From Catonia carolina (lineage: Eukaryota; Arthropoda; Insecta; Hemiptera; Achilidae), in NCBI GenBank assembly GCA_035578175.1, contig JAQMRL010000005.1, forward strand, positions 55,719,722-55,783,721: a stretch of 64,000 nucleotides of DNA, written 5' to 3'. Shown one piece after another: positions 14,262-59,730 of this stretch. Position 1 is the stretch's first letter. Every line of letters begins with the position of its first letter. A program made the position numbers and the translations under genes. The notes under the pieces were generated by a model. It saw nothing but the letters and a program-made list of their open reading frames with translations, was not told the origin of the DNA and searched no databases.

Positions 14262-17200
14262 ATACCAAATCACAAGTATAACTATGGATCGTACAATTAA
14301 TAACAAAATTACCCCAGGTGGTAAAAATCCACTCATTTCACCATAATTATAACATCTAAAGAAATGACAACCGGTCGATCGGATTCTGGGGGGACCGGAA
14401 TTGCACGAAATCATGAGTGAAACAGTCTATACTGGTGAGCCTCCCAGAACAAAACGCAAAATTAAGGAACCTAAACATTACATAGGAACAATTAATATAC
14501 AAACACTTGTCCAAACTGGAAAGCTCCATGCGCTAACAGAAGAAATGAAAAAACAGAAGGTACAAATTCTTGCAATCCAAGAGACGCGATTTCCTGATAA
14601 TCAAACGATAGACTATAATGGCTTCAGATTATTTAAAAGTGGAACGAATAGGAAGGTTGGGAGAGGAGCAAATATGCTTGGAATGGCCTTCCTGGTGGAT
14701 AAGACAATACTGAAATCTGTTAAGTCTGTCAAACCAGTGAACAATCGGCTTATGACCCTTCGAATCAAGAGTAAAAATAAAAACTATACCCTTGTAAACA
14801 ATCATGCTCCCTGTAACATTGACAACCAAAAGATCGGGAGAATGTTGAAAAGCACTGGGAAACACTGGAATTGGAAATGGCCAGGATTCCAAAAGATGAC
14901 ATAAAAATTCTGCTCGGAGATTTCAATGCCCAAATTGGCAGGGAAAGGAAATATCAGAGAACCGTTGGACTTTTTCCCGCTCACAGAATGACCAACCGTA
15001 ATGGGATGAGATTGATACAACTCTGTCAACAATTCAATCTCAAACTTAGTTCCACATCTTTCAATAAAAAGCCCAAGAAACAGAAGACCTGGAGGTCACC
15101 CATTTTGCAACTGGGAGAATATCAGATCGACCATGTCGCGATTTCATATGATAACCAGAGAGAGATTCGTGATATCCAGGTACGAAGAGGCGCCAAAATT
15201 GAATCGGACCACTATTTAACCAGAGTGCGTGTTAATTTCACTGCCAGGAAAAAACTAATCACAATACCAGCTGCGATCCCCAAATTCAATCTTCCCAAAC
15301 TTAAAGAATCAGATATTATTTCACAATGGGAAGAAACTCCTGCAGAAAATTGGATTGACTTTAAAAACAAAATAATTAAATCGGCAGTGGAGGAAATACC
15401 CCTTAAAAAGAAGCGCAAGCATCCTTGGTGGAATTCTGTGTGTGATGAAGCAGTCAAGTCTCGTCATAAAGCCTTTTTGAATTTTAATTCCAATAAATCT
15501 GAAGACAAGTACCAAGCTTTCCTCCAAGCTCGTAAATTAACAAGTAAGATTATAAGGCAAGAGAAAAGAAAATTTGTTAATCAACAACTGGACTCAATTG
15601 AGTCTGATTTCCGAAACTATAACACTCATGGCTTTTATAAGACGTTTGCTGGACAAATTAAGGGTTATGCACCGCAGAATATTTGTTTTCGAAAAATGGA
15701 TGGAAATTTGGCTTTAAACGATGAGGAGAATTGTGAAGAACTGGCCAAGTATTTTGAGAGATTATTGAACTGTCCTGAACCAACAGAAACTTTTCCTGTT
15801 TCGGGGGAAAGAACACCCCAGAATTCAAATTCTCTTCCCCCTTCCAAGGAAGAAATTGATAGGCATATTAATAAACTAAAAAATAATAAAGCATCTGGGG
15901 AAGACGGGATTGTTACAGAGTTTCTTAAGAATTTGGGACCAAAGTCAAAACTGGAACTGACAAAAATAATTCAGAGAATCTGGGAGACTGGAGCAATCCC
16001 TGATGACTGGAAAACTGCTCTCATTCACCCGCTCCATAAAAAGGGAGATCCAACTGATGTGAATAACTACAGGGGAATTTCCCTTCTTCCTGTGGCCTAC
16101 AAAATTCTTTCTGCCTGCCTAATTGAAAGAGTACAAAAACAATTAGAACCTCAAATTTCTGACTTACAAGCCGGTTTCAGACCTAATCGGTCGTGCTCGG
16201 AACAAATATTAAATCTAAAGTTAATTACTGCAGTAAGAAAATCAAGAAGCAAACCGACTATCTATACTTTTGTAGACTTCCAAAAGGCCTACGACTCTGT
16301 TCACAGACCAACCCTTTTCAGAATCCTTGAAGGAAAAGGCCTAGATGCTAAAACCCTTGAAATAATTAAACTAACGCTCACTGGCACGAAGTCTAAAGTT
16401 AAATTTATGGGACGATTATCACAGCCTTTTGACATTAAAACTGGAGTAAGACAAGGAGATGGACTGTCTCCGCTACTTTTTAACTTAGCCCTTGACAACG
16501 TGATGAGAGCATGGGAACAAACATTGAAAGAGGAGAATCATTGGAGTCCAATGTATCTCGGTAGAAAGAATAAAAACTTACAGATCCCTTATTTGGCCTT
16601 TGCGGACGACTTGGCAATTTTTTCTGAGTCAAAAGAACAGGCCATCAAACAAGTTGAAACTCTGAAGGAGTGTGCCGAGAGAATTGGACTACAAATCTCC
16701 TTCACAAAAACTGTCTTCACTTGCCATAATACGGAAGTCAAAGAGCTTGACACCAAATATGGAAAAATAAATAAAGTATCTCACTTTAAATATCTGGGGA
16801 AAATGTATCTGAGAAGGAAGCCTACAGCGATAGAATTCGGAAAGCCCGGAAAGGTCTTGGACTTGTACATAATATCTATAATAAAAAATGTTTATCCATA
16901 AACTCTAAATGGAGACATTATTCTACAGTTATTAAGCCCTCAATGACATATGCCAGTGAAACATTGAGTCTTAATCGTAAAATGGACTTGGACATTCTTT
17001 TGAAGGAGGAGAGAAAAATCATCCGGAAAATACTTGGACCGAGGGAAGCACAGAATGGTTTCAGGCTGCAGAAGAATTGTGAAGTCGAAAAGCACTCTAA
17101 TATAGTAGCAGACATGAGGAAGAGAAGACTTAAGTTTTTCGGACATATTAAAAGACTCCCCGAGAATAGGATAACACGGAAAATAGTGGAATATGTTAGC

Positions 17201-17938: not shown

Positions 17939-20160
17939 TTAACTATTATATTCCCTTACAAAATCTTTCCTGTAATTCCACGAATTTCTCACATACACAA
18001 TAAATTTAGCCCAGTCACTACCATTTAATAAATCTACAACTTGCTCTTCTGCAAGATATCTGGCCCCAAACACTGTTAATCTTATCTCCACCAGTATCAG
18101 GCATCTGCCAATAAAATGCATAATATCTTCAGCTTCCCTTAAATTACACAGTGTACATAATAACTGTACCCCCTCTCTACCTGGCCTATGATTTAACTGC
18201 CACAGTGATCCTCTAGTTCGAAAAATTATCGAAATATCATTTCTATTCAGCAACACATTTATATAATTATTACTGCCCAAATCCCAACTTAACTGATTAA
18301 AAATGGAATGAAATTGAGATCTTCTCGCCCGCATAATAACTGTTTCTCTATAACTTATTCTCATAGAATTTATAAGGTATTGTAATTGTGTCTTCCATTC
18401 ATTAGCTCCATTCACACCTTCACTTACTTCACATGCATACCTTTCACCCAACTCCTTCCATTCCTTAAACCATCCTACATTCTTTTCAATAATTTTTGTT
18501 GTTATAACGCGCGGTAGTCGGTGGTTCTCTAACTTTAAAATTTTCAAAATATAGGACACGTGCAATGAAAACAAATAATAATATAGCCGCTCCCTACCTG
18601 TTTCCAAGTATACAATATAATTAGGTGTAGACTGCGGAAGCGAGAACATCTTCTTTATAAAAAACCTCTGTAGCGCCTCTATTTCTTCGTAGGGCTTATA
18701 TCCCCATACCTGTCCTGCATAACTTACTATCGTCCTATTTACAGCATTGTAAACTTCCCATTTACTTTTAACTGGTATTTGCTGAGTCATTATACCTTTC
18801 CATGTACTATTGAGGCCTGATTTTGCGGCCGCCACCTTCTCCCTTATATACACCGCAAAATTTAAACTAGGAGTAAAAGTAACGCCCAAATATTTATATT
18901 TCTTTACTATTACAATTTGTTCATTTCCCCAATACCATTTTTCCCTCTTTGCAAGTCTACCTCCTTTTCTGAATACCATGGCTCTTGTTTTTTCCATATT
19001 TACGCGCAAAGCCCACCTAACACAGTAACTTTTTACATTGTTTATCATTCTCTGTAAGCCCTTCACTGTTGAGGCCATTACCACTAAATCATCAGCGTAA
19101 AGTAACCCCCTAACGTTCAGTTCATCTATCCAAATGCCCTCCTCTAAATTATCTATCAGGTCATTGATATAGAGAGAGAAGAGCGTGGGCGATAACACGC
19201 AGCCCTGTCTTACGCCACACGACGTTTCAAAAGCGTCCGTTAATCCATGTGCACACCACACCCGCGCACAAGTACATTTATACATTTCTTTAATAATATT
19301 TACAAATTTAAAAGACAATCCCAACTCCCATAATTTATATAACAGTGCCCCTCTGTCAATTGTGTCAAAGGCCGCTTTAAAGTCGACAAACAAACAATAC
19401 AATTTCACTCCCCTACCCTGCAATTTTAGTTTTATTAAATTGTGTAAGGTGAAAATGTTATCAACCGTAGAATACCCTTTCCTAAACCCTTTCTTAAATA
19501 TAGGAAATATAATTGATTCTGAAAAATTAGCTGGCATAGTCCCTGTCTCCAAAATCCTATTGTAAAAATTTAATAGTACCATGAAAACATTTTCTGGCGC
19601 TGCCTTACAAAATTCCGCTGGCACACTGTCAGTTCCAGGCGCTTTATTCTCCTTAGTTTTCCCAATAGTCGCCACCAGTTCCAAGTAACTGATAGGAGCA
19701 TCCATATCCCTGTCCTCTCTGTAAGGGACTGCATAAGCGACAGGAGTAGCAGATCTGCCCACGGCTAATAACCCCTGAAAATACTGTACCCATCTTTCGG
19801 CCTGAATGTCCACTGAGCATCTATAATTAGTTCTTTTAAAAATCTTAATCAGCTCCCAGAAATCCTTCGAGTCTTTTACATTACGCAATTTTTCTGTTAA
19901 CCCACTAAAAAATAACTTCTTTTTGTTTCTACAAAGTCTACCATAATGTTTTTTCTGTTCTAGATATTTACATCTTGTTTGATCACAATTACTTATCCTA
20001 TATAATTTTAAACATGCAAATACACGTTCTCTTGCTTTCTTACACTGCCAATCAAACCATATTTCCTTGCCTGGTCTAACAATTTTCCCTTTACTTAAAG
20101 CATCCCTTCCTGCCGCTTCATATATCCAACTACGTATTTCTGTCTCATTACCACATCCAT
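17939..20160 (-). pseudogene. LINE ORF2, reverse transcriptase and C-terminal part, internal deletion
   Basis: An open minus-strand frame from about 20160 to the stop at 17939. It includes NKAPGTDSVPAEF, VDFKAAFDTIDRG, GVRQGCVLSPTLFSLYIND, the catalytic YADD at 19088-19099, KYKYLGVTF and a terminal knuckle CTLCNLREAEDIMHFIGRC. The sequence runs straight from PIFKKG into FRKGYSTVDN at about 19473-19500, where related LINEs have some 40-50 residues including an NYRGIS motif. The deletion keeps the frame and its ends share the word AAAGGG. With that block missing the polymerase is unlikely to work. The frame is shifted relative to 20095-20652. Confidence 0.88.
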
Positions 20161-33720: not shown

Positions 33721-36720
33721 TCGTAGTTCTTTTTTGCTTGAATTTAAAGAGGATCTCCATGGAATGTGTTTAAAATAGATGCCTATTTACTGGTCATCTT
33801 ATAAAGTTACTCACTCAAACTGTGTTACTTAACTTCTTATAGTAACTGTTAGCTGAAGATCTAACAATTTTCTTTAATATTATGATAACTGTTATTATCA
33901 CAATTTATTGCTTTAGAAATTTATTTTTCAGACTATTTAGTTTGAAGACCACCTTAGAATCTTTAGTATGCACCCTAACTATGATAGCAGAAGCCTATGT
34001 TCAACTACTAATCACTTAAAAACTATCTTCAATAACTTAACAGCATTTTAGTTAAAGCAGAATATTGTTGTTATACTGAAAATACATTATTATACAGCAT
34101 TTAACATAATGAATTACATTTTGAGGGGTATTATATGCAAAATTCACAAAATCCAATTTTTTAAAATTTTTCAGAAAGAAGAAAAACTTACTTCTTAATT
34201 TTCAGCTGATTTCTGAGCTTGATTTTTTTATGATATCGCAACATGTCTTTAGACTAGTTTATGCACACACAAACAGATGTTAGTTAAAAGAAAATCTAAA
34301 AATAAATATTTTTTATTTTGGATAATGTAAGTTTTGGAACAAAGTTTAGGATAATGTTAGTTTTGTTTCAAACTTATTAAGAGATTATACGAAATGCAGT
34401 GACTCAGACTAAGAAAAATAACTAAGTTAATGGAAATAATTTTGCTTTGATAATGAAGAAGAAGTTATTATAATATTATAAAACATATTTTCAAAACTAA
34501 AGGTGACAGCCTCGTAGACACACATTATTCAGCGCACTAGCAAAACAAAACTCACATTCTCCAGATGTAGGCTGCAATGTTGAATGTTTGGTTGAAGCAT
34601 TGTCATTGGTGGATATGGATTGTGTGAGGTTTGACACAAATAGGTGGTTGGAGAATGTTAGATTTTTTAGCTCAAAAAAATAGGATACAGTAAGCTTTGT
34701 TCCGCATTGTTATGATAAAACGATGTAGTTCAACATGACAAACCAGATGGCAGTGGTAACTCAATTTTCAAAAAAATTAGATTATGTAAGTTTTGCATCT
34801 ATACCTCTCATTTTAAATAATCACGTAATTATTTTGAAAACTGTGTAAATTCATAATTTTTATTCATTTTCATTTAAATAAATAGGGATAATATTTTATG
34901 TTACTTTTTATATAAATTAACAAAGCCACACAAATATACATTTTCATAATGGATGCATTAGTAACAGCAATTCTTACAAAGTTTAATCTTGACAAATCAC
35001 ACAGCAAAGAACAGTTTATAAATGCTTTAAAATTACAGTCATTCGAAAGAGAAGAAACTTCCTTTTCAAAGTGAAAAGAGATTAAAATATATAGTGCACT
35101 TAACTTACATTACGTTTACTTTCAGATATAAATGTGAACGTAATATTTTTAAAAGTTTTTAACTTTTACTGCAGTACTCTATTTTATCTAAATCCAAACA
35201 CTTTTTAAAAGAATAAATGTAGAAATGAATACAGTACGAGAAACGTAATATGTATTACCACATGTTACAAACACCTAATCACAGTCTATTATTTTTTTTT
35301 AAATTTTGTTTCAAATCCAAATAACTCATGCAATATTGGTGGCTCCACCGTTGATTTATACAACTCTGCTAATCTGAAACCCACTAATCTAACTTTTTTT
35401 TTTGGTTTAACGTCCGACTGTTTTGCAGTTACTGACTAACTGATTTCTAATGAATTTAACATACTCTTTACAATAAAATGTGTTTTAAATTAATAACTAA
35501 GTAATTTTAAAATATTTTAATAGGTTTCTAAACATAAAATAAAAAAAAATGAACAGTAAAGTGTTAAGAATAGAAAACGAACACCACCAGGTTTTTAATT
35601 GAAGATATACTTACAATATAAATAATGGTTGAATGGTAAAATATTTTTTCTAGTTAAAGAAATTATAAATTTTCACTACTTTCAGCTGTATAAAATCACT
35701 GTACACATTAACTCTTCAGGTGGTTTTTATAAATTAATATTATTATACTTTAAAAATATGAAATGAAAAAATCCAAGAAGGAGATCATATTAGAAAAACA
35801 CAGTGTAAACAAAACAATCTACAAGAAGTATTTTAAAATGTGGTAGTACTAAAAAGCTTTCAGTTGTATTTGTCAAAAAAGGTTAATAAATTTCCAAACT
35901 TATGAGATTATTAAGTTCAGTATAGATTGAGGTTATGCTAGCAATTAACCTAACACCTGAGATCTTTTTAAATATCTTCAACAAAATAATTCACTCAAAT
36001 TATAAATAAGACAAAACTTAAAGCAAATTAAGTTATATTATAATTACCATAAATTATATTATTTATTTTAGGTTATACATATTTATTGATAAACAAACAT
36101 TTAGAGTTTAAACTTAACAATACAATACTTATGAAACAGACAAACATGCAAATAAAATAATGCAACAAGTAAGACTGGAACAATGCCCAGCTTAATACAG
36201 AAAATTGGTGAAATGTTGGGAATAATACAAGAAACAAGAAAACTTTCCCAACCTAACCTACTTTCATCTTGATAAATGAAGGGAGAATGAAATGAGGCAG
36301 GCACATTGTGTATAAAGAAACATATCATTTGGTTTTGAGGCGATAGAATATAATGGCAAAGGATATGCCATACAGAAATACACTGTTTACACTAGAACAG
36401 AATGAACTTGTTTATGTAGTAGTATGGAAAAGGAAGTGTGTGATAAGAAACAACGTGGGTGAAGAGAAATGACGACAAAAGACAATGGCGGATGCTGTTT
36501 CCATAGAAACGAAATATCGATTTCACCAGAACGAGATATCTAACCTCATCTTTTACAGTAATGAGCACAATCACCTTAAAATCGATATTTTTTAACTGTG
36601 TCACTTTCAGGCCACAACTTTTATAATATTATTGATGATAGTTTTATCGCTTCCTTTGCACGATAAAGAGAGTAACCCCTCATCTGAATTGACTTCACAT
36701 CGACTCAGACAAACATCGAT
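33721..36720. other. Long AT-rich stretch, nothing recognised
   Basis: About 3 kb. The only match is a SINE-tail fragment at about 35395-35440 (TTTTTTGGTTTAACGTCCGA, the 3' part of the SINE at 42775-42945). No gene supported. Confidence 0.4.
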
Positions 36721-36726
36721 ACTACA

Positions 36727-37172
36727 TATCATCTGGCGGGAAAATTATCCCGCCAGATGATATGGCGGGATATCATCTGGCCATATCCAGATGGCCATCT
36801 GGATATGGCCATCCAGATGGCCATATCCATCCAGATGGATGGATATGGCCATATCCATCCATCTGGTGTGGATGGATATCCACACCAGATATGGATGTGG
36901 ATATGGTCATATCCACATATATGACCATCTGTCATATATGTGGACAGATGGTCCACATATATGACAGATATATGTGGATATATCTGTCCACATATATCCA
37001 CATATATGTGGATATGTGGATATGACATATCCACATATGTGGATATGTGGATATGTCATATCCACATATGACATATCCACATATATCTGTCCACAGATAT
37101 ATGGATATATCTGTGGATATATCTACAGATATATCCACAGATATATCCGTGGATATATCTGTGGATATATCT
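36727..37172. repeat. Cascade of overlapping perfect palindromes
   Basis: 446 bp made almost entirely of palindromes that overlap head to tail. Examples: a 15-bp stem at 36727-36741/36748-36762; a loopless 32-bp palindrome at 36779-36810; a loopless 36-bp palindrome at 36831-36866; a 22-bp stem with a 2-base gap at 37127-37172. The words drift steadily along the array, from CCCGCCAGATGATA through GGCCATATCCAGATGG, GGATGGATATGG, GGTGTGGATGG and ATATCCACATATATG to AGATATATCCACAG. Neither a constant-unit satellite nor a single hairpin looks like this. Open frames on both strands here (Trp/Ile/Tyr/His repeats) are by-products. Confidence 0.95.
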
Positions 37173-37224
37173 TAATTTTTAGTTTAATCGCGCGCCAATT
37201 TACCGTTCCCTTCTTTATAAAAAA

Positions 37225-37654
37225 AATATATTAAGAGCAACAGAAAATTATTAAAGGAGATAATATCTTCTTGGTAAATTAAAAAAATAAAACTATCATT
37301 AAAATTCCAAGAAATTGGAAATGACATAGTTTTAATGACATAATTTTAATAATGACATACACATAATTTTAAGAATGACATAGTTTTAATAGACCATTTT
37401 TTTACGATATGCTATTTTAAATAGGTGTTACACGACTACAGCAATAACATTGCCCAAAACAAATATTAGAAAAATTTTTTTTTTTAAATATTAAGAGCAA
37501 CAGAAAATTATTAAAGGAAATATCTTCTTGGTAAATTAAAAAAATAAAAATATTAAAATTCCAAGAAATTGGAAATGAAGTGTTAATAGACCATTTTTTT
37601 ACGATATGCTATTTTAAATAGGTGTAAAACGACTACACCAATAACATTGGCCAA
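37225..37654 (+). repeat. Imperfect tandem duplication
   Basis: Two direct copies, about 37226-37450 and 37487-37650. Each starts ATTAAGAGCAACAGAAAATT and passes through TATCTTCTTGGTAAATT and ACGATATGCTATTTTAAATA to an AATAACATTG-CCAAAAC end. The left copy has an extra set of short TGACATA-TTTTAAT repeats. The duplication lies directly downstream of the palindrome cascade. Confidence 0.85.
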
Positions 37655-37797
37655 AACGGGCAGGTGGAGTGTTAAATTAATTGCACTCGATCTGTTGGTT
37701 CCAGGGCTACAAAACAAGTTCTGTTTCTTATCACATAGTCAGCCAATTATATGATTTAACTAGGTATTTAAGAACAGAAGAGGTAGAGGTGTAAAAG
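37655..37797 (+). repeat. Repeat family A, 5' half
   Basis: From GGGCAGGTGGAGTGTTAAAT to GAACAGAAGAGGTAGAGGTG, then abrupt change to repeat B. The 3' half of the family is missing. Confidence 0.75.
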
Positions 37798-42229: not shown

Positions 42230-42726
42230 GAAAATATTGAAAGCAGCAGGTAAACCTAATGCCGAGTGGGCTTTAAACTCATGGTTTTTGCAAGAAAGAG
42301 CAAGGCAATTTATAGTCAGTGGAGACATTTTCACCCAAAAGTGAAGTTTTTCTACAATGAAATGACCGGGAAAGACGACTTTCAAGCCAGTAATGGCTGG
42401 CTGGACAAATTCAAACAACGATATGGAATTAAGACTGTAAACTGTTACCGGTGAAAAAAATTCTAGGATATCGATAATTTTATAGACTTTAAAACAAAAT
42501 TCCAGGATGAAGTAGAAAAACGGGTTTTAACAGCAGATCAAGTTTACAATGGAGATGAGTCGGCATTGTACTGCAAAATGTTGCCAAGAAAAACCTTAGT
42601 TCATAAGGGGGAAAAGACTGCCGCTGGATTCAAAGTTAAAAAAAATCGCATAACATTTTTCCCGTGGAGGAACAGCACTGACAGTCAAAAGTTACCATTG
42701 TTTGTATTAAAGCTGTGTTTTGTTTA
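42230..42726 (+). pseudogene. Tigger/jerky-type transposase remnant
   Basis: The plus strand reads HPKVKFFYNEMTGKDDF, then QASNGWLDKFKQRYGIK, a CENP-B-like DNA-binding block. After a frameshift it has QVYNGDESALYCKMLPRKTL (first catalytic Asp) and KTAAGFKVKKNRITFF, ending LPLFVLKLCF. Order and motifs match pogo-group DDE transposases. The second and third acidic residues are missing beyond the SINE insertion. Dead. Confidence 0.82.
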
Positions 42727-54954: not shown

Positions 54955-55324
54955 AAATTGTCATCTATCATTTTTCTTTGTCCGTCCGTCACACCTATAT
55001 ATCAAAAACCATAAGAGATAGCAACAAACGGTTTTCAGATTCATAATCTACTCAAAAATTCAGAGGCCTAAATTAGGTTTGAAGTTCAGGTTTCGACTGG
55101 AAGTGGCCCAAAACCGGAAGTCTAGAAATCAAAGTAAGAAACTACAAGAGATAGCAACAACGGTCTTCGGATTCGTAATCCACACAAGAATTTACTGACC
55201 TAAATTTACTGAGTTTGAAGTTTCGGTTTCGACCGGAAGTGGCCCAATACCGGAAGTCAATAAATCATAGTAAGAAACTACAAGAGAAAGCAACAAACGG
55301 TTTTCGAATTCGTAATCTACAAAA
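54955..55324 (+). repeat. Tandem minisatellite upstream of repeat B
   Basis: About three units of roughly 120 bp. Each contains AAGAGATAGCAACAAACGGT, CGTAATCTAC, AGTTTGAAGTT and CGACCGGAAGTGGCCCAA, ending CCGGAAGTC. It runs directly into the repeat-B start at 55327. The same units occur at 4197-4400, so this block is probably the 5' part of a longer form of the repeat. Confidence 0.8.
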
Positions 55325-56273
55325 AAAATCTGGTGTGAAACACTCACACAACGTTTACTTGCCAATGCAAATAATTAATAATATATATAACCTAACATTA
55401 GTAATAAAACATGAGAAATAAACAAAAAAACTAACTTCCAAAAACATAACCTTATTTTAATTATGAGTGAATGATGCAAAATAAAAATCACCTCAGATTG
55501 GCTTAAAAATACGGAAAATCACTCTTTCACGCTAAACTAGGCTCCTTAGAGAAAAAATGCTTAAAATAAAATTTTGTAAACTTTTTAATTTCCTATAAAT
55601 GTGATTATACTTTTTTGTAGTAAAATGCATACTAAGGCTGCAATCTTAGAAAAAAAAAAATCGATTTTTTTTTTAAACATTTTCGTGAAAAAAAAACAGA
55701 AAATCCCTAATTACCACTAAACTAAGCGTTATACAAAATAATAGTTGTAGGTTTTAAAATTGTCTACAACTTTTATTACATAGGTACACTTTTCCCCTAA
55801 AATGCATATAAAGGCCGCAATCTTTAAAGCCCATTGTTTTCTTCGAGAGCACAGCCTCCCCAAGAATTTTAGCAGAAATGGCACTTGCCCTATCTTGTAG
55901 AGTATAAAAAATGTAGTAAATAAAGTGATTTAAAAAAATCGTAGAAGCCATTTTTAAGAAAATAGCAAAACAGTGAATAATTACACGAATAAACTACTGC
56001 TACTACTTCCGGTTGACCGATTTTGATGAAAACGTTCGTGTTGGGTCCTCTAGTACTACCTAACTTAAGTTTCAATTTTCAACTTCATAAGATGTTCCGT
56101 TCTTGAGATATTTTGTTCACGCGCGTGTGCGCTCATATACACACAGACCAATATAGCTAAAAACATGTATTTTTTTGGTTCAGGGGGTATGTTCGGTGAA
56201 AACTCGATTTCTAAAAATCGACACGAAAGCAATACTTTCCTTCCTATACATTCATATAGGCAAGAAAAAGTAA
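55325..56273 (+). repeat. Repeat family B, full copy
   Basis: Runs from TCTGGTGTGAAACACTCACA to GGCAAGAAAAAGTAAT. The CA position holds a mixed CGCGCGTGTGCGC and ACACACAGAC sequence. All internal landmarks present. Confidence 0.85.
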
Positions 56274-57748: not shown

Positions 57749-59730
57749 TTTTTTTTCAGCCGTGCGGAGCGGGGGAATCTTCTTAGGGCCAAGCGGCTCC
57801 CCCTGCCTTTTCAATTCCGGCTGGGCCTGAAAGATACCACTGCACGCGCAGTGGTTATGGGTTATGTGGGGTTTTTACCCACTAAACCTAACCAACCGCC
57901 CCTTCTCAACACCAGGTACCGGACCCGCCTACGATGGCATTACTCAGTACCCGGTGTGCCCTGGCAAAAAACTCAACCCCTTAACGTTATCACCGGACCC
58001 GTAGGGCTTATTGGCCATTCAGCCGAGGCTCAATGACCATACCTACTAGCCTAAATACCCCAGACCTAAGCCCGAAGTATATCGCGACAAAAAAGTAACA
58101 CATAAACCTAACCCCTGATAATGGGCTTTACTGACGGATTATCATTGATAAACCGTCATACCACGAATAACATGCACACACACATTCATACCTACATAAA
58201 AAGCTTCTAAAATAAAGGGCGAGGGGCCCGAGAACTATGTTCCCAAACCCCCCGTAACAAACCAGGTGGACTCTACATTGAATTAACCAGGATGAAGATC
58301 AACATCATCGCTCCCGCAGCCGACGCTCGTCTTCACCCTTGGGTCGCAGAATGGAACTAACCAGCAGCTGCACACTCTTCCATGCTTCCTGCGACTCCAG
58401 CATCTTCTTCACCACGGTGTCCGCCATGACGTCTTCGCCAACAGCGACGGCACACCGCCTCCTCTCTTCCGCCCACCTTCCACACACCAGAATGGGGAAC
58501 TGGGTGAGGAAAAAGTCCAGCTCCCCATGGCGCCTTTCCAGCCAACTTTTCAGCTCTGGGATCAGCCTATGGGTCCATCGACCCTTCTCTGACCCAGACC
58601 ATCTAATTTGCCACTGCTGCATCCTGCGATCCTTGGCCTCGCTTTTGGGCATGCCCCCCGCCACTGCCGCTCTCTCTTCAATGACCAAGTCGATAGGGGG
58701 CACCCCGGCCAACACAAACGCCGCTTCCGCAGACACTGTACGGAACGCCAGGCACACACGAAGGGCGACGCGCCGTTGTACTGCTTCTAAGCACCTCCGT
58801 GCCACCTGGAATTCCAGAGCCCTACTCCAACATTCTGCTCCATACACTATGACGGATGTCACCACCGCCGCATACAGTTTTCTCTTCGATGGTCTAGGCC
58901 CATGCATATTTCCCATAAGCCTACCCAGAGCCTTAATCAGTCTGTCCGCCTTGCCGCAGACTTCTCGTACATGGGGGATGAACACTCTGTTTTTATCCAA
59001 CCATACCCCCAAGTACTTGACCTTCGGCAAGGGTGTGATGACCTTGTTTCCAACCCGGAAGGTTATCTCGCCGAGTAGCCGCCTACCCGCCATAACTACG
59101 GCCTCCGTCTTCTCTGCTGCCACTTCTAAGCCGACGCTGGCCATCCAATCCATTATGATTGCAATGGCTTCGTCCGCCTTTTCCATTACAGTTTGCGGAG
59201 TCTTCCCCACCACCACAATGGCGAGGTCATCCGCAAACGCGACCGTTGTTACGCCGTCTGGTAACACCAGCCGAAGGACGTCGTCGTAGGATAGGTTCCA
59301 CAGGTCCGGTCCGAGGATTGAGCCCTGTGGAACTCCGCAATACATCCTCTCCTCTAATATCTCGCCCTCCGACTCGACCATCAGCAGCCTCTCCGACAGG
59401 TACCTCTGTACGATACGTAATAGGTATTCGCTAACCCTCTTCTTTTTCAATGCTTCAACCACAACACCCCACGGAAGCTGTTGAATGCATTTTTTATATC
59501 GAGCAGGATTACAGCGGGAATTCTTCTTGTCCTCCAGCTTCCCGCCGCAGCCTCGTCCACCTTCTGCATTACGAGCCCAACGGCGTCTGCCGTTGACCTT
59601 CCTTCCCGGAAGCCAAACTGTCTTTCCGACAGACCGCCGTTCCGCTGGATTTCTTCTTTCAGCCTAACCCTCAGCAAGCTCTCGTAGAGCTTACCCAACG
59701 AATTGAGCAAGCATATCGGCCGGTAGGCCA
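57749..59730 (-). mobile_element. 5'-truncated R1/LOA-like LINE
   Basis: About 2 kb on the minus strand, much richer in G+C than its surroundings. A short A-tail (T8 on plus) at 57749 is followed by the 3' UTR (to 58304) and the ORF2 C-terminal half. TTAAGACC occurs directly outside both ends (57740-57747 and about 59736-59743), the probable target duplication. Truncated in the reverse transcriptase. Confidence 0.88.

What the first reader, a model, noticed from the sequence alone, without database searches (positions are those of the whole stretch)
36727..37172. A 446-bp drifting cascade of overlapping perfect palindromes
Almost every base lies in at least one palindrome, and successive palindromes share an arm with the next one. 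Several are long and loopless (32 bp at 36779, 36 bp at 36831; 22-bp stems at 37127). The word changes gradually from GC-rich at the left (CCCGCCAGATG) to AT-rich at the right (AGATATATCCACAG). This looks like a record of repeated hairpin-primed or template-switch synthesis, each step copying the last arm with small edits. Satellite amplification or a single inverted duplication would not produce the drift. Either an unusual repair or polymerase process acted here, or it is an amplification or assembly artefact.
Basis: partly seen in the sequence, partly recalled or inferred. Interest (0 to 1): 0.92.

Follow-up and report, generated by a model that had tools for sequence, protein, structure and literature searches.

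The report
Runaway self-copying DNA repair scar
A unique 448-base stretch of an insect-like genome reads as if one DNA end had folded back and copied itself about thirty times in a row, which would be a far longer version of the small fold-back insertions known from error-prone break repair.

Summary
Thirty inverted repeats with perfect arms (arm at least 8, loop at most 6) cover 442 of 446 bases, and the words drift steadily from left to right. The block and its left flank are each single-copy in a 1.47-Gb assembly. No tandem unit spans it.

Parsed left to right, the block is mostly reverse-complement copies of sequence lying just behind the growing end. With a primer of at least 1 bp and a loop of at least 3 nt there are 31 copies: median 11 nt, longest 26, 22 of 31 from a template within 15 nt. 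Single steps fit published inverted templated insertions of DNA polymerase theta (3-30 bp; 1-3 bp pairing, 6-nt loop; PMC11292364). What differs is about 30 repetitions. Old and young arms are equally intact (6 mismatched of 531 pairs), which favours one recent burst.

Best reading: iterated snap-back synthesis at a broken end. The copying pattern is well supported, left-to-right growth is favoured only about 5:1, and the polymerase is inferred. Reads, relatives and other individuals could not be seen, so an artefact is not excluded.

The parts
36480..36724 (.). left flank, single-copy in the assembly
   Evidence: one match, itself, in a 1.47-Gb search
36725..36748 (+). presumed native seed: first template arm plus loop, the last ancestral bases before the cascade (inferred)
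   Evidence: first 17-bp arm starts at 36725 and does not extend further left; forward parses treat the first 21-25 nt as uncopied
36749..37172 (+). presumed inserted tract (about 424 bp) made of about 30 chained reverse-complement copies
   Evidence: constrained parse: 31 inverted copies, median 11 nt, maximum 26 nt, 78 nt not credited including the seed
36725..36764 (.). first hairpin, 17-bp perfect arms, loop 6
36778..36811 (.). loopless perfect palindrome, 34 bp
36831..36866 (.). loopless perfect palindrome, 36 bp
36927..36969 (.). hairpin, 19-bp perfect arms, loop 5
37012..37069 (.). longest perfect hairpin, 27-bp arms, loop 4, itself made of two smaller palindromes
37103..37148 (.). hairpin, 22-bp perfect arms, loop 2, sharing its right arm with the next one
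37127..37172 (.). last hairpin, 22-bp perfect arms, loop 2
37173..37480 (.). right flank; its first 7 bases are the reverse complement of 36741-36747 beside the first loop (may be chance)
   Evidence: the genome search for this flank did not complete

Best explanation
The block is the scar of one runaway burst of self-templated synthesis, most likely at a double-strand break repaired by polymerase-theta-type end joining (synthesis-dependent, snap-back). The 3' end of the left side (about 36748) folded back, paired through a few bases a few nucleotides behind itself, and copied about 11 nt; the stem melted, the new 3' end folded back again at a slightly different place, and so on about 30 times, until the tail was joined to the right side near 37173. 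Because each step copies only what the last steps made, the text drifts away from the native seed. Shown: the chained inverted copies, their length and template distance, the drift, the single copy, the intact arms. Inferred: break, direction, polymerase, single burst, joining.
For: Inverted copies explain the block best: 469 bits against 594 for direct copies and 896 raw. In the greedy left-to-right parse 31 of the 35 copies inside the block are inverted (a 36th copy lies in the right flank). With primer >=1 bp and loop >=3 nt the parse costs 522 bits instead of 469 and still has 31 copies, median 11 nt, maximum 26 nt, template distance median 8 nt, 22 of 31 within 15 nt. PMC11292364 (Discussion read) reports inverted insertions of 3-30 bp and, for Drosophila, 1-3 bp pairing with a 6-nt loop as most favourable; a review says repeats used lie near the break and fall out of use towards 30 bp (PMC7407515, passages). 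Growth wholly from the left is the cheapest of all split points (468.6 bits; all-right 484.6). Arms on the presumed old side are no more decayed than on the young side: 1 mismatch of 182 pairs left of 36940, 5 of 349 right of it (counted). Rival generators gave the signature in 0 of 60 each.
Against: The end-growth simulation itself met the signature in only 3 of 60 runs; the real block is denser in palindromes than most runs. Clean end-growth simulations give a larger direction gap (means 44-97 bits) than the real 16.5; only a noisy version matches it (mean 17.3, sd 18.4; 86 of 100 positive), and a model of insertions at interior sites shows the same sign (94 of 100), so the gap does not prove end growth. 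Some palindromes have loops of 0-2 nt, which a single strand cannot prime directly. 78 of 448 nt are not credited under the constrained parse. In vitro, with all four dNTPs, Pol theta filled the stem and did not go on to further random extension (PMC11292364 section 7), and insertions of this length are not described in what I read. No reads, relatives or empty allele were seen; the host's Pol theta gene was not checked because the search did not complete.
Confidence: 0.58

Rival explanations
1. Serial replication template switching: separate short-range inverted template-switch mutations, each fixed in turn at a hairpin-prone hotspot over many generations, some at interior sites rather than at one growing end.
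For: Single events of this kind are common in great apes, with a modelled inverted length of about 10 nt (PMC7954356, passages), and they create perfect hairpins (PMC8794818, abstract). An interior-insertion model shows the same sign of direction gap (94 of 100).
Against: Arms made early should have decayed; 1 mismatch of 182 pairs on the left, 5 of 349 on the right. Interior insertion compresses less well in simulation (609 bits, sd 49) than the real block (469), end growth better (531, sd 53; parameters chosen by me).
Confidence: 0.2
2. In vitro artefact: hairpin extension by a polymerase during library amplification, or a consensus error, taken into the assembly.
For: Self-priming palindromic synthesis by polymerases in vitro is known (recalled; one search listed only reviews that mention it). 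No reads could be examined.
Against: The block sits between unique flanks (left flank checked) inside a 75-Mb contig of an assembly of 142 contigs; many independent reads would have to carry the same 448 bases.
Confidence: 0.14
3. A functional or mobile element: a hairpin-rich end of a transposon or virus, or a hairpin RNA locus kept perfect by selection.
For: Very strong folding (z -21.9).
Against: Single-copy in the genome; no Rfam family in the window at gathering threshold; its 108-codon open frame has no relative in the protein collection; no terminal repeats or clear target-site duplication seen; the repeat words change along the block.
Confidence: 0.05
4. A decayed palindromic satellite array.
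For: Short tandem segments exist, such as a 12-bp unit 5.9 times at 37102-37172.
Against: Nine tandem rows of seven different periods fall in the block, the longest 87 bp, none spanning it; simulated palindromic-unit satellites keep the same far and near similarity (0.446, 0.441) whereas the block falls from 0.318 to 0.059; no copies elsewhere.
Confidence: 0.03

Closest known systems
Inverted templated insertions of theta-mediated end joining / snap-back SD-MMEJ (PMC11292364: abstract, Discussion part 1, section 7 and passages read; PMC7407515: passages)
   Same: Inverted copies of 3-30 bp from sequence just behind the end, 1-3 bp primer pairing, loop of about 6 nt, several templates possible in one junction.
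   Different: About 30 successive self-copies and about 424 bp of new DNA; reports I read describe one or more short copies. No break, genotype or second allele is known here.
Short-range template-switch mutations, four-point model (PMC7954356 passages; PMC8794818 abstract)
   Same: Inverted copy within tens of bases creating a perfect hairpin; modelled length about 10 nt.
   Different: Those are single events that return to the original template; here each copy is the template of the next.
Small inverted triplications in FEN1/Rad27-deficient cells (PMC13334657, passages)
   Same: Fold-back or palindrome-primed synthesis that makes inverted repeats.
   Different: Median 148/160/148 bp with a 30-bp spacer and 6-bp junctions; one inversion cycle, no chain, no drift.
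MMBIR templated insertions (PMC8421209, passages)
   Same: Inverted insertions of at least 10 bp with a template within 100 bp; sometimes several switches.
   Different: Template is the chromosome, not the newly made insert; no chain of this length in the passages seen.
Self-primed palindromic synthesis by thermophilic polymerases in vitro (recalled; only mentioned in papers listed)
   Same: Hairpin self-priming yields long palindromic repeats.
   Different: In vitro, usually a constant unit; here it lies between chromosomal flanks and drifts.

Membership tests
TMEJ / SD-MMEJ snap-back insertion | new DNA is an inverted copy of sequence beside the junction | tested here: met
   31 of 35 greedy copies inside the block are inverted; inverted-only parse 469 bits against 594 direct-only
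TMEJ / SD-MMEJ snap-back insertion | copy length 3-30 bp | tested here: met
   31 copies, 6-26 nt, median 11; lengths under about 6 cannot be credited by the parse
TMEJ / SD-MMEJ snap-back insertion | short primer pairing with a small loop near the end | tested here: inconclusive
   requiring >=1 bp and loop >=3 costs 522 bits and >=2 bp costs 560, against 469 without; 22 of 31 templates within 15 nt, 9 farther (16-55 nt)
TMEJ / SD-MMEJ snap-back insertion | insertion at a break, seen against an unbroken allele | not testable with these tools
   left flank occurs once in the assembly; no other individual or relative held
TMEJ / SD-MMEJ snap-back insertion | dependence on DNA polymerase theta | not testable with these tools
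   presence of the gene family was asked for but the search did not complete
Short-range template-switch mutation | single switch and return to the original template | tested here: not met
   about 30 chained copies whose templates are themselves copies
Satellite DNA | constant unit repeated head to tail | tested here: not met
   no tandem unit spans the block; near/far similarity 0.318/0.059
Satellite DNA | copies elsewhere in the genome | tested here: not met
   5 matches, all within the block itself (simple words are skipped by that search)
MITE or other transposable element | multiple copies and target-site duplication | tested here: not met
   single copy; only a 3-base TTA flanks the presumed insert on both sides, which may be microhomology or chance (sequence)
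Known structured RNA | match to an Rfam family | tested here: not met
   0 matches in the window at gathering threshold

The most novel reading that the evidence does not exclude
Animal cells can, in one event, synthesise hundreds of bases of new chromosomal DNA with no template other than the growing end's own last hairpin: a self-feeding fold-back polymerisation that writes new, drifting, palindromic sequence into the genome. If so, such snowball insertions would be a separate class of de novo sequence birth, and each would record the step length, loop size and primer rule of the polymerase that made it.
Probability: 0.25. Interest if true: 0.85.

Novelty: new variant of a known kind. Interest (0 to 1): 0.62.

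Why it matters
If the block is real in the animal, it shows that snap-back repair synthesis can run on for about 30 cycles in a germ line, although in vitro work and short in vivo insertions suggest that it is tightly limited. The order of the copies is a readable record of polymerase behaviour (step length, loop size, template distance) that can be measured without an experiment wherever such scars are found. It also shows a way in which new, strongly folding, unique DNA can arise at once, which bears on the origin of hairpin RNAs and fragile sites.

Tried and rejected
Satellite, drifting palindromic unit, random-orientation satellite and one big palindrome: simulated and rejected (0 of 60 each). 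Growth from the right or from both ends: more costly (484.6, and every split point above 468.6). The preference for left-to-right is modest: real gap 16.5 bits; taking the noisy model's mean 17.3 and sd 18.4 as symmetric normals I get about 5:1, which is my arithmetic. In the greedy parse the direction is undecided: inside the block 34 uncopied nt left to right against 35 right to left (recounted).

Other cascades: in 100 kb sampled from the same genome (10 loci) I found no block like this; two clusters of three overlapping palindromes occur (L007:6919-6965, L011:9266-9315), none in L013-L016. The sample is 0.007% of the genome and shows only that such blocks are not very dense.

Conservation: the 108-codon minus-strand frame of the block had 3 candidates and no match in the protein collection. 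Candidate host exon upstream: no PDB or Pfam match (the queried piece lacks its first two residues). Papers: nine searches listed no paper whose title or abstract start describes a chained, drifting palindrome block; this covers open-licence full texts only. Yu & McVey 2010 and Khodaverdian 2017 are not held and are known here only through citing papers.

Full report
What is there. Positions 36725-37172 of the window hold a chain of overlapping inverted repeats. The strand folds far better than its shuffles (z -21.9, 0 of 100 as low). Relaxing the loop to 12 nt and allowing mismatches gives 35 hairpins with 531 arm pairs and 6 mismatches, of which 5 lie in the repetitive tail. The vocabulary drifts: 6-mer similarity falls with every distance class, from 0.318 to 0.011 (the last class has 6 pairs).

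Where it is. The window lies at G000:C91:55719722-55783721 in an assembly of 1,471,388,699 bases in 142 contigs; contig C91 has 75,245,328 bases. Three long open frames of the window carry reverse-transcriptase domains. The closest named relatives of one of them, in a list of 120 of 949, are mostly psyllids such as Diaphorina citri, the best at 52% identity, beside a leafhopper, a wasp and a moth. A hemipteran host is likely but not proved. The block's only matches in the genome are to itself and the left flank is also single-copy. To the right lie two copies of a local unit (37228-37336 with 37488-37587, 90%; 37382-37460 with 37579-37657, 94%) and, from about 37648, a dispersed repeat with six more places in the window and hits in four of ten sampled loci.

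How it was built. I parsed the block as a text in which each new phrase may be copied, inverted or direct, from the preceding 60 bases. Inverted copies alone give 469 bits left to right and 485 right to left; direct copies alone 594 and 578; no copying 896. Letting both kinds in gives 490 and 498, with 4 direct copies in each direction. The best split point between growth from the left and growth from the right is the right end itself, that is, all from the left. When each copy must start from at least one paired base and a loop of at least 3 nt, as a folded single strand requires, the cost rises to 522 bits and 31 copies remain: median 11 nt, range 6-26, template distance median 8 nt, 22 of 31 within 15 nt and 9 farther, up to 55. 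Ties in that parse are settled in favour of the farther template, so the nearness is not made by the method. 78 of 448 nt are not credited, the first two dozen being the seed.

Direction and single burst. In clean simulations of end growth the right direction is cheaper in 29 or 30 of 30 runs in each of six settings, by 44-97 bits on average. The real gap is 16.5 bits, which fits a noisy version (mean 17.3, sd 18.4, positive in 86 of 100), but an interior-insertion model is also positive in 94 of 100. So left-to-right is favoured about 5:1 (my arithmetic) and end growth is not proved by the gap. The interior model compresses less well (609, sd 49) than end growth (531, sd 53) or the real block (469), with parameters that I chose. 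If copies had been added one by one over long times, arms on the old side should have decayed; there is 1 mismatch of 182 pairs left of 36940 and 5 of 349 right of it (counted). That favours a single, recent event, or a few close together.

Rivals. Four other generators, run 60 times each, never gave at least 20 palindromes, 90% coverage, near similarity of at least 0.2 and far similarity of at most 0.1 together; end growth did so in 3 of 60. The thresholds were set after seeing the block, and the low success of end growth says that the real block is unusually dense. Nine tandem-repeat rows fall in the block, the longest 87 bp. No Rfam family matches the window at gathering threshold. An amplification or assembly artefact cannot be excluded without reads.

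What it works like. Pol theta can start synthesis from two terminal base pairs of a stem-loop on one strand (PMC11292364, abstract). Its Discussion states that inverted templated insertions of 3-30 bp are frequent in mammalian cells and that in Drosophila 1-3 bp pairing with a 6-nt loop is most favourable. A review describes preferred repeats of 2-4 bp close to the break, falling out of use towards 30 bp (PMC7407515, passages). Every single step here fits those numbers. What does not fit is the repetition: in vitro, with all four dNTPs, the stem fills to its end without further random extension (PMC11292364 section 7). Loops of 0-2 nt must be explained by hidden micro-steps or by pairing between two ends. 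Short-range template switching (PMC7954356, PMC8794818), small inverted triplications (PMC13334657) and MMBIR insertions (PMC8421209) share the inverted copy but not the chain, in the passages that I saw.

Ends. The presumed last native bases before the insert read AAAATTA and the right flank resumes with TAATTTT, its reverse complement. This may mark an AT-rich palindrome that broke, but a 7-base match in this composition can be chance.

Verdict. Nine paper searches listed nothing like it, within an open-licence library. No second block was seen in 100 kb of the same genome, apart from two clusters of three short palindromes.

Noticed in passing
37228-37657: Two local copies of a roughly 180-250-bp AT-rich unit just right of the block (90% and 94% identical over two parts), one with extra copies of a short AATGACATA-type motif.
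   Followed up: partly
from about 37648 to 37700 and on: Start of a dispersed repeat with six further places in the window and hits in four of ten sampled loci of the genome.
   Followed up: partly
36485-36560, + strand: Possible first coding exon (about 25 codons, ATG in good context, then a GTAATG donor-like site), which would place the block in a first intron; no database match.
   Followed up: partly
36733-36748 and 37183-37195: GGCGGGAAAA and GCGCGCCAAT on either side of the presumed insert look like E2F-type promoter words (recalled, from no call).
   Followed up: no
14871-16898 (+), 17939-19888 (-), 58305-59462 (-): Reverse-transcriptase frames of non-LTR type; the first has closest named relatives in psyllids.
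   Followed up: partly
42260-42451 (+): Remnant with a Tc5-type transposase DNA-binding domain.
   Followed up: no
55006-55327: 136-bp tandem unit, 2.4 copies.
   Followed up: no
L007:6919-6965 and L011:9266-9315: Small clusters of three overlapping short palindromes elsewhere in the same genome.
   Followed up: no
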